Positions 27,582 to 30,563 of a stretch of 64,000 nt of DNA are shown here, one piece after another. Made by a program: the position numbers and the translations under genes. The stretch lies in contig NZ_JACIDR010000001.1 in NCBI RefSeq assembly GCF_014196425.1, forward strand, positions 744,001 to 808,000, in the 5' to 3' direction. Numbering within the stretch: the first letter of the stretch is position 1; each line of letters opens with the position of its first letter. Source of the DNA: Hansschlegelia beijingensis (lineage in GTDB: Bacteria > Pseudomonadota > Alphaproteobacteria > Rhizobiales > Methylopilaceae). Below the pieces are notes generated by a model. That model worked only from the letters and a program-made list of their open reading frames with translations. It did no database searches and had not been told where the DNA came from.

Positions 27582-30311
<2,730 letters not shown>

Positions 30312-30392
30312 CCGTCGCGGCTCCGCTCCAGATTAACTCTAATCCGAGCGTTTCCTTGCCGGCTACCGGCCCTCATGGGAGGATCGGTCGTC

Positions 30393-30467
30393 GGCCCGGT
30401 GGGGGAATGGCTACCCGGGGGGCGGGAACGTCTCCTCATCCTGGTTCAAGTCCAGGCTGGGCCTCCA
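30393..30467 (+). ncRNA. tRNA-like RNA with a GNRA-capped anticodon stem (no anticodon loop)
   Basis: The 75 bases have a seven-bp acceptor stem GGCCCGG/CTGGGCC, discriminator T and encoded CCA. The T-arm is perfect, CCTGG-TTCAAGT-CCAGG. T8, A14, G18-G19 and A21 are present, and the D stem pairs GGG with CCC. The anticodon arm does not fold normally: GGGGGCG (30418-30424) pairs with CGTCTCC (30429-30435) around GGAA, a GNRA tetraloop, leaving no seven-base loop and no U33. The three G-U pairs are tolerated in RNA. A weak promoter TTGCCG-N17-GAGGAT sits at the right distance upstream, and a terminator follows. The first three acceptor pairs and U73 are as in tRNA-Cys. Function is unknown. Confidence 0.72.
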
Positions 30468-30472
30468 AGATT

Positions 30473-30508
30473 GAAGCAGCGTCGCCTCAGGGGCGGCGCT
30501 GCTTCCGT
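30473..30508 (+). terminator. Intrinsic terminator of the tRNA-like gene
   Basis: A 14-bp stem (one G-T wobble), GAAGCAGCGTCGCC with GGCGGCGCTGCTTC, encloses TCAGG and is followed by CGTTT. It begins only six bases after the CCA, so the tRNA-like RNA seems to be the last product of its transcript. The T tract is short. Confidence 0.75.
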
Positions 30509-30526
30509 TTAGGGCCATGCCATGGA

Positions 30527-30563
30527 CGAAAAGTCGCCCGGCCGCTCCCCATGCGGCCGGGCG
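30527..30563 (-). terminator. Rho-independent terminator of the 55-residue membrane protein gene
   Basis: An 11-bp perfect stem, CGCCCGGCCGC with GCGGCCGGGCG, encloses a seven-base loop. On the minus strand it is followed by ACTTTTCG. It lies 65 bases beyond the stop of the small minus-strand gene. Confidence 0.8.

What the first reader, a model, noticed from the sequence alone, without database searches (positions are those of the whole stretch)
30393..30467. tRNA-like gene whose anticodon arm is a GNRA-capped stem
Acceptor stem (7/7), T-arm (5/5, loop TTCAAGT), conserved D-loop G-G and an encoded CCA are all intact, which argues against a decaying pseudogene. But the anticodon arm forms a seven-bp stem closed by GGAA, a stable GNRA tetraloop, so the RNA cannot decode. 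The gene has its own terminator six bases downstream and a weak promoter at proper distance. The first three acceptor pairs and U73 match those of tRNA-Cys, so it might be charged and used outside translation, or serve as a decoy for tRNA-binding proteins. I do not know a described family with this design.
Basis: partly seen in the sequence, partly recalled or inferred. Interest (0 to 1): 0.82.

Follow-up and report, generated by a model that had tools for sequence, protein, structure and literature searches.

The report
Conserved non-decoding cysteine tRNA relative
This is a small RNA gene that seems to descend from a spare copy of the cysteine tRNA, in which the part that reads the genetic code has become a closed hairpin while the part that carries the amino acid stayed intact; many related soil and plant bacteria keep it, so it may have a job outside protein synthesis.

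Summary
Window 30393-30467(+) is a 75-nt tRNA-Cys paralogue: intact acceptor stem, T-arm, U73 and CCA, and a 7-bp anticodon stem capped by GGAA. The genome also has an ordinary tRNA-Cys(GCA). It is not a decaying copy: all 13 genomes of the genus that were searched (Methylopila/Hansschlegelia group) have it with GGAA, at 89% mean identity between flanks at 56-62%. Homologues occur in other Hyphomicrobiales families, including Bradyrhizobium, Tardiphaga and Afipia. In a 35-sequence alignment 6 of 7 anticodon-stem pairs carry compensatory changes. The cap varies (GGAA, UGCA, GUGCAA, CGACC...), while U73 is present in 103 of 103 distinct sequences. Rfam's tRNA model misses the window copy. A TTAA-SS-NTAA box lies about 60 nt upstream in 53 of 88 non-redundant loci and in none of 89 downstream control windows; in the window's genome the exact pattern precedes ftsE, ftsW, pal, flagellin and a motor gene, which suggests CtrA control. 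Best reading: a dedicated non-decoding, cysteine-accepting tRNA, working like the staphylococcal non-proteinogenic tRNA-Gly. Expression, charging, the regulator and the acceptor of cysteine are inferred, not shown. Rivals: a structural decoy or regulator, or a precursor of fragments.

The parts
30393..30467 (+). tRNA-Cys-derived, non-decoding RNA (75 nt)
   Evidence: ARAGORN 'tRNA-??? (ggaa)'
30393..30399 (+). acceptor stem, 5' strand (GGCCCGG)
   Evidence: G1-C72 and C3-G70 in 103 of 103 distinct homologues
30402..30416 (+). D-arm (3-bp stem, loop GAAUGGCUA, tRNA-Cys-type loop with G-G)
   Evidence: compare tRNA-Cys L047
30418..30435 (+). remodelled anticodon arm: 7-bp stem closed by GGAA (30425-30428)
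   Evidence: covariation
30440..30456 (+). T-arm CCUGG-UUCAAGU-CCAGG; pair 51-63 is U-A where canonical tRNA-Cys has C-G
30457..30467 (+). acceptor stem 3' strand, discriminator U73 (30464) and encoded CCA
30333..30342 (+). upstream box TTAACTCTAA (8 of 9 to TTAA-SS-NTAA), 60 nt before the RNA; CtrA-like by inference
30355..30360 (+). CTTGCC, possible -35 element (CTTG or GTTG at a similar place in most genus members, by eye); no clear -10
   Evidence: consensus scan negative
30473..30505 (+). 15-bp hairpin 5 nt after CCA, terminator-like, weak T-run; hairpin also in the 12 other genus members
   Evidence: terminator scan negative
27582..30311 (+). gyrA, upstream neighbour
   Evidence: NF004043, 1188 bits
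30868..31440 (+). coaD, downstream neighbour
   Evidence: TIGR01510, 171.8 bits

Best explanation
The gene makes a dedicated non-decoding relative of tRNA-Cys. A second tRNA-Cys gene arose in Hyphomicrobiales and was released from decoding: its anticodon stem grew to about seven pairs and its loop shrank to 4-6 nt, in the window's genus a GGAA cap with no trace of GCA. The acceptor/T-arm half and the CysRS identity base U73 stayed fixed. The RNA is most likely charged by the ordinary CysRS (U73 suffices to give minihelices Cys identity in published work), is kept away from the ribosome by its closed loop and, in many lineages, by loss of G18-G19 and an altered T-stem, and hands its cysteine to a non-ribosomal acceptor. 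It is transcribed as its own unit, probably under the cell-cycle regulator CtrA. Shown here: paralogy, conservation, covariation, identity elements, upstream box, downstream hairpin. Inferred: transcription, charging, CtrA, exclusion from translation, the acceptor.
For: The own genome has a canonical tRNA-Cys(GCA) with the same D-loop type, GGC..GCC ends and U73. 13 of 13 genus genomes searched carry the RNA with GGAA; mean identity 0.893 in the RNA against 0.563/0.618 in 75-nt flanks. 35 structure-aligned homologues (34 distinct): anticodon stem 95.3% paired, 6 of 7 pairs with double changes; 73 double-change cells in the whole structure against 17.0 in shuffles. 103 distinct sequences: U73, G1-C72 and C3-G70 each 103 of 103; stem of 6 or more pairs in 96; loop of 6 nt or less in 90; GCA still in the loop in 86; nine further distinct sequences all have U73. 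Pair 51-63 is U-A in 90 of 103 against C-G in 34 of 35 canonical tRNA-Cys; G-G absent from the D-loop in 65 of 103. U73 alone gives Cys identity to minihelices (PMC9976931, passages). Loss of GG18-19 and changed 49-65/51-63 pairs mark staphylococcal tRNA-Gly thought to be set aside for cell-wall synthesis (PMC4052509, passages). Upstream box in 53 of 88 loci against 1.8% in shuffles and 0 of 89 downstream windows.
Against: No transcript, charging or phenotype data were available. The window's genus has lost GCA, a major CysRS determinant in E. coli, so its charging could be poor; it also keeps G18-G19. No partner enzyme found: one strong PF01406 (CysRS) match in 57 of 61 genomes and no second one, and the methyltransferase that neighbours the RNA in many Bradyrhizobium-family loci occurs without the RNA and has no match in the window's family. 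In the Bradyrhizobium family only 62 of 119 genomes have two or more matches, and 38 of the 39 genomes re-searched with laxer filters gained no strong second match, so the RNA is dispensable there. The box is absent or degenerate in 35 of 88 loci, among them all four copies of genus g3, and CtrA is a motif-level assignment. The effect of C51-G63 to U51-A63 on EF-Tu is unknown to me.
Confidence: 0.5

Rival explanations
1. Uncharged structural regulator or decoy: the RNA occupies a tRNA-binding protein (CysRS, EF-Tu, RNase P, a modification enzyme or a tRNA-cleaving toxin) or acts as an sRNA, and tRNA shape rather than cysteine is what matters.
For: The window's genus lost GCA altogether, as did other lineages (17 of 103 distinct sequences have no GCA in the loop); the cap differs between lineages while the closed stem stays; own upstream box and hairpin, as for an sRNA. 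The Bacillus cereus pseudo-tRNA tRNA-Other is poorly aminoacylated, off polysomes and regulatory (PMC3399842, passages).
Against: A pure decoy does not by itself explain U73, G1-C72 and C3-G70 fixed in 103 of 103 while other acceptor pairs change, some with compensation. Loops that vary argue against base-pairing through the loop.
Confidence: 0.28
2. Precursor of tRNA-derived fragments: the stable folded RNA is cut into halves that act as small RNAs.
For: Only general: tRNA fragments are discussed as regulators in a review (PMC4052509, passages).
Against: The anticodon arm, where halves would be cut, differs in sequence between genera; a closed tetraloop looks a poor cleavage site (inference).
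Confidence: 0.07
3. Still a decoding tRNA-Cys with an unusual 8-nt or breathing loop (for example a frameshifting tRNA).
For: GCA persists in 86 of 103 loops; 13 of 103 have loops of 7-9 nt by the automatic cut; second tRNA-Cys genes with normal 7-nt loops exist in related families.
Against: The window's genus has no GCA; the stem is held closed by covariation; an ordinary tRNA-Cys is present; G-G is missing from the D-loop in 65 of 103.
Confidence: 0.05
4. Non-functional tRNA remnant (pseudogene).
For: About half of the Bradyrhizobium-family genomes searched have only one match; the Rfam tRNA model misses it.
Against: Conserved body between diverged flanks; compensatory changes in three of four helices, six of the eight such pairs in the anticodon arm; conserved upstream box and downstream hairpin.
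Confidence: 0.03

Closest known systems
Non-proteinogenic tRNA-Gly isoacceptors of Staphylococcus (cell-wall glycine donors)
   Same: Extra tRNA isoacceptor thought to be kept from translation; loss of G18-G19 in many homologues here; changed T-stem pair 51-63; retained acceptor identity (PMC4052509 and PMC9976931, passages).
   Different: Here the type is Cys, the anticodon loop itself is closed by an extended covarying stem, the hosts are Hyphomicrobiales, and no transferase is known. G18-G19 is kept in the window's own genus.
tRNA-Other, pseudo-tRNA of Bacillus cereus
   Same: tRNA-like gene not used in translation, with its own regulation (PMC3399842, passages).
   Different: tRNA-Other keeps a Trp anticodon, lies inside longer RNAs and is found in some Bacilli; the present RNA looks like a discrete unit and its structure covaries across families.
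Canonical tRNA-Cys(GCA)
   Same: Acceptor G1-C72, G2-C71, C3-G70, U73, CCA, D-arm type, T-loop type.
   Different: 7-bp anticodon stem with a 4-nt cap instead of 5 bp and a 7-nt loop; 51-63 U-A instead of C-G; 75 nt or longer in 95 of 103 variants, 74 nt in 35 of 35 canonical genes.
tmRNA tRNA-like domain
   Same: Acceptor/T half kept, decoding arm replaced (recalled).
   Different: No messenger part; 75 nt followed by a hairpin; Cys-type U73 (that tmRNA is of Ala type is recalled).
Selenocysteine tRNA and allo-tRNAs
   Same: Unusual tRNA anatomy in bacteria (recalled).
   Different: Acceptor plus T-stem is 7+5 here, not 8/5, 8/4 or 9/3 (recalled); no long variable arm; no UCA anticodon.

Membership tests
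Functional (decoding) tRNA-Cys | 7-nt anticodon loop with U33 and GCA | tested here: not met
   GGAA on a 7-bp stem, 13 of 13 in the genus
Functional (decoding) tRNA-Cys | Discriminator U73 and G1-C72, C3-G70 | tested here: met
   window sequence; 103 of 103 distinct homologues
Functional (decoding) tRNA-Cys | Recognised by the Rfam tRNA model RF00005 | tested here: not met
   no match at E<=1 in 30300-30560; no match at the RNA in 9 related loci at the gathering score
tRNA pseudogene | Drifts like its flanks; helices not maintained | tested here: not met
Non-proteinogenic tRNA (staphylococcal tRNA-Gly type) | G18-G19 replaced | tested here: inconclusive
   no GG in the D-loop in 65 of 103, but GG kept in the window's genus
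Non-proteinogenic tRNA (staphylococcal tRNA-Gly type) | T-stem pairs that weaken EF-Tu binding | tested here: inconclusive
   51-63 U-A in 90 of 103 against C-G in 34 of 35 canonical genes; the effect on EF-Tu was not testable
Non-proteinogenic tRNA (staphylococcal tRNA-Gly type) | Aminoacylated and used by a non-ribosomal transferase | not testable with these tools
   needs biochemistry; no transferase candidate found
tmRNA | Messenger-like part with a tag reading frame | tested here: not met
   ARAGORN reports three tRNA genes and no tmRNA in the window; RNA is 75 nt
tRNA-Sec / allo-tRNA | 12- or 13-bp acceptor branch with 8/5, 8/4 or 9/3 split and long variable arm (recalled) | tested here: not met
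   7+5 pairs and a 4-nt variable region
CtrA regulon | CtrA box (TTAA-N7-TTAA or TTAACCAT, PMC11527210, passages) at the promoter | tested here: inconclusive
   TTAA-SS-NTAA at 8 of 9 or better in 53 of 88 upstreams; the distal half-site is weak; none of four g3 copies has it; binding not testable

The most novel reading that the evidence does not exclude
A CtrA-timed, ribosome-excluded cysteinyl-tRNA: Hyphomicrobiales evolved a dedicated Cys-tRNA whose decoding arm is closed into a hairpin, so that charged cysteine can be delivered in a cell-cycle-linked way to an unknown non-ribosomal transferase (envelope, pilus, flagellum or peptide modification).
Probability: 0.2. Interest if true: 0.92.

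Novelty: new variant of a known kind. Interest (0 to 1): 0.76.

Why it matters
The dedicated tRNAs for non-ribosomal use that I know of are mainly those for glycine in staphylococcal cell walls. A conserved cysteine-type RNA with a structurally closed decoding arm, missed by the Rfam tRNA model and present in plant symbionts such as Bradyrhizobium, would point to an undescribed cysteine-transfer reaction or a new class of tRNA-shaped regulator, and offers a natural experiment on which tRNA parts are needed without decoding. It can be tested directly with existing Bradyrhizobium transcriptome data.

Tried and rejected
Rejected as partner: the SAM-dependent methyltransferase upstream of the RNA in 36 of 64 loci examined (L083 and L273 appear to be the same record). 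It also occurs in Bradyrhizobium-family genomes where no variant RNA was found (G409, G414, G476, G485, G493; weak second hits of 37.5 and 42.3 bits in G476 and G493 were not inspected) and has no match in the 18 f1 genomes G000-G017, so it looks like shared gene order only. Rejected: a second CysRS (a strong PF01406 match in 57 of 61 genomes, no second strong one in the part of the list shown; in G026, G043, G053 and G059 the strong match was missing or partial).

Rejected: pairing or kissing through a conserved loop sequence, since the cap varies. Rejected as the main reading: a frameshifting or 8-nt-loop decoder.

The box TTAA-SS-NTAA was first treated as an unknown regulator's site; the CtrA reading came from the genes behind the exact sites in the window's genome. 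Against it: in G051 the pattern is not enriched over its reversed control (34 against 99 matches); the window's own site has one mismatch; none of the four g3 copies has it; the palindromic form GTTAASSWTAAC has a single site in G051, beside beta-barrel-like genes (by eye).

The first MAFFT alignment A1 mixed strands and was discarded. Segmentation is automatic and misplaces the T-arm frame in about ten sequences (the 'GG' and 'TC' cells), so T-stem counts are lower bounds. Sequences dropped before the counts: copies with a normal 7-nt loop and those ending ACCA or GCCA (other tRNAs). The scan listed 80 of its 111 stretches; the other 31 were read only (all 31 whole, all with U73, nine new distinct sequences) and are not in the 103. 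Counts by genome were read from the tables by me: 62 genomes with two or more matches, 49 with one, 8 with none; in one of the 49 (G445) the single match is the variant itself, and in some of the 62 the second match may be canonical (G427 has two of 74 nt) and was not inspected. In one search, 227 of 289 class genomes have a match at E<=1e-10 and only G000, G608, G742 and G791 have two; searches over 40 genomes use stricter filters that lose weak matches. Weak extra hits (37-45 bits) were mostly not inspected; of those opened, three were tRNA-Met or tRNA-Phe and one a tRNA with a long variable arm (L306). The 62-bit second hit of G418 was opened and is a variant-like copy.

Paper searches whose listings showed nothing on this RNA: (CC-licensed PMC papers only; listings and abstract starts seen). 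The Bradyrhizobium TSS paper (PMC4842269) was searched for passages only and its supplements were not available; the 2012 Bradyrhizobium sRNA paper is not held. PMC8450103 and PMC2877005 were seen as passages and are not used as evidence.

Full report
WHAT IS THERE. Window 30393-30467(+) lies between gyrA and coaD. It reads as a complete tRNA body of 75 nt: acceptor 7 bp, D-arm with the tRNA-Cys-type loop GAAUGGCUA, T-arm CCUGG-UUCAAGU-CCAGG, 4-nt variable region, U73 and encoded CCA. In place of a 5-bp stem and 7-nt loop, the anticodon arm is a 7-bp stem closed by GGAA. ARAGORN writes 'tRNA-??? (ggaa)'. Rfam's tRNA model does not report it even at E<=1, while the same model gives 44 matches elsewhere in the genome, so annotation that relies on such a model may miss it.

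IT IS A tRNA-Cys PARALOGUE. The genome has an ordinary tRNA-Cys(GCA), GGCCACG-UG-GCG-GAAUGGUUA-CGC..., the only match in the genome to a tRNA-Cys anticodon/T-arm pattern. The two share the GGC start, the D-loop except one base, the T-loop type and U73.

CONSERVATION IN THE GENUS. Of 101 genomes searched (own included) 17 have a match; all 13 genomes of the genus do, the 12 others at 87-95% identity to the window copy. GGAA is invariant in 13 of 13 while the stem changes sequence and mostly stays paired. Mean pairwise identity is 0.893 for the RNA and 0.563 and 0.618 for the 75 nt up- and downstream, with a shuffled baseline of 0.494. A strong hairpin follows the RNA in 13 of 13. gyrA lies beside it in 11 of 12 other genomes and coaD in 10 of 12, within the stretches held.

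WIDER FAMILY. A pattern scan of named genomes gave 111 stretches, of which 80 were listed; 79 of these could be cut out whole, and so could the 31 unlisted ones. The genus is named there as Methylopila, Hansschlegelia and Chenggangzhangella (one record is filed as Chelatococcus sambhunathii). Other carriers are Bradyrhizobium, Tardiphaga, Afipia, Pseudolabrys and unnamed Hyphomicrobiales. Model R1 found two or more matches in many genomes of the order (379 of 397 have at least one, which is mostly the canonical tRNA-Cys). With model R2, in the family of Bradyrhizobium 62 of 119 genomes have two or more matches; not every second match was read. In the class sample, of 227 genomes with a match only G000, G608, G742 and G791 have two. 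Copies with a closed or altered anticodon arm were read in the window's family (all 13 genomes of its genus and 4 of 4 of genus g3; none found in G013), in the Bradyrhizobium family, and singly in two further families (G141, G045). Some relatives have a second tRNA-Cys with a normal 7-nt loop (L304, L302, L303), which may be an earlier stage.

COVARIATION. On 35 structure-aligned homologues (34 distinct) 98.5% of pair cells are standard pairs. The anticodon stem has 7 pairs, none invariant, 6 with changes on both sides, 95.3% paired; the acceptor and D stems have one such pair each and the T stem none. There are 73 double-change cells overall against 17.0 in shuffles and at most 16 when partners are slid. 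The alignment was fitted to the structure, which favours it; the slide and shuffle controls and the smaller MAFFT alignment point the same way.

WHAT IS FIXED AND WHAT IS FREE. In 103 distinct sequences U73, G1-C72 and C3-G70 are 103 of 103; the CCA reads CCG in 2. The stem has 6 or more pairs in 96, the loop 6 nt or less in 90, GCA is in the loop in 86, and G-G is missing from the D-loop in 65 by an automatic cut. Common caps are GUGCAA (28), UGCA (22) and GGAA (11); others are GGCA, CUGCAA, CCGCAA, CGACC and GUGAAA. T-stem pair 51-63 is U-A in 90 of 103, against C-G in 34 of 35 canonical tRNA-Cys. U73 was not part of the pattern (C3 was), but it is part of the covariance models, which leans the set towards it. 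Nine more distinct sequences, read later, all have U73.

READING OF THE ANATOMY. A closed tetraloop cannot present an anticodon, so decoding is out by anatomy (inference). U73 is a major Cys determinant and alone confers Cys identity on minihelices (PMC9976931, passages); its complete conservation is best explained by charging with cysteine. Staphylococcal tRNA-Gly molecules thought to be set aside for the cell wall show replaced G18-G19 and weakened T-stem pairs (PMC4052509, passages); the present family shows the first in 65 of 103 sequences and a change at the same T-stem pair in at least 90 of 103. In the window's genus GCA is gone, so charging there may be weak. That is the main weakness of the donor reading, and it is why the decoy/regulator rival keeps 0.28.

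TRANSCRIPTION UNIT. No sigma-70 consensus promoter is found by the scan. Upstream sequences of the altered copies share a box: EM consensus CGTTAAcctTAA, mostly starting around -60 or one helical turn up around -70. Scored as TTAA-SS-NTAA at 8 of 9 or better it is in 53 of 88 non-redundant upstreams, against 1.8% in shuffled windows and 0 of 89 downstream windows. A stricter core is in 41 of 88 (shuffles: mean 0.9, at most 4 in 200), against 0 of 31 upstreams of other tRNAs of the own genome and 1 of 20 upstreams of normal-loop tRNA-Cys and other tRNAs. The exact pattern occurs at 12 distinct places in the own genome (16 rows over both strands, 4 in the reversed control). Ten loci holding such places were opened: eight have, a short way downstream, ftsE, ftsW, pal (NCBIfam equivalogs), flagellin, a MotA-family motor gene, an M23 peptidase, an SH3-domain gene and a beta-barrel gene; the other two were not identified. 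CtrA sites are described as TTAA-N7-TTAA and TTAACCAT (PMC11527210, passages; PMC7200025, one passage). That several of these genes are typical CtrA targets is recalled. The assignment to CtrA is therefore inferred. In G051 the pattern is not enriched genome-wide (34 against 99), and none of the four g3 copies has the box; two of these lie 46-47 nt behind greA.

CONTEXT. In the Bradyrhizobium family a frequent order is methyltransferase - RNA - carB; in genus g3 it is carB - greA - RNA. The shared carB/greA neighbourhood suggests common descent of the two groups, and the window's genus would then have a moved copy. No functional link to these neighbours is suggested.

VERDICT. The GNRA cap is one lineage's version. 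That it is a conserved non-decoding paralogue I hold at about 0.9; that it is a cysteine donor outside the ribosome at about 0.5; that CtrA controls it at about 0.55. Novelty: new variant of a known kind (tRNAs set aside for non-ribosomal work), with no described family found in the searches named.

Noticed in passing
L301:729-1430(-) (G045), RNA at L301:3037-3113(-): The gene for CtrA itself (NCBIfam NF045991, 422 bits) lies about 1.6 kb downstream of the altered tRNA-Cys copy in this genome.
   Followed up: partly
L205 / L265 (G473): Two different variant copies (76 and 75 nt) about 0.9 kb apart in one genome.
   Followed up: no
L304, L066-L069 (family f41), L302, L303 (family f6): Second tRNA-Cys genes with a normal 7-nt loop; those of f41 carry the T-arm CCUGG/CCAGG of the variant family. 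Possibly an intermediate stage.
   Followed up: partly
L363:227-302(-) (G791, same class, not marked as same order): A 76-nt tRNA-Cys-like gene with an odd anticodon arm; ARAGORN calls it tRNA-Ala(cgc). Possibly an independent case.
   Followed up: partly
L083:5289-5984 and homologues: A SAM-dependent methyltransferase (42-83% identical to the L083 protein in other loci) lies mostly 55-125 nt upstream of the RNA in 36 of 64 loci; it also exists without the RNA.
   Followed up: yes
L101 (JAUEPE010000011.1): A record titled 'Frankia sp. RB7' carries the Bradyrhizobium-type RNA; the record is perhaps misnamed or contaminated.
   Followed up: no
L146, L148 (Afipia), just downstream of the RNA: Sequence resembling a Ser-type tRNA gene starts within about 60 nt after the variant RNA (by eye).
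   Followed up: no
G000:C3:186414-186440 (L338/L341): Two TTAACCTTAA-type boxes 17 bp apart upstream of a flagellin gene, a candidate CtrA promoter.
   Followed up: no
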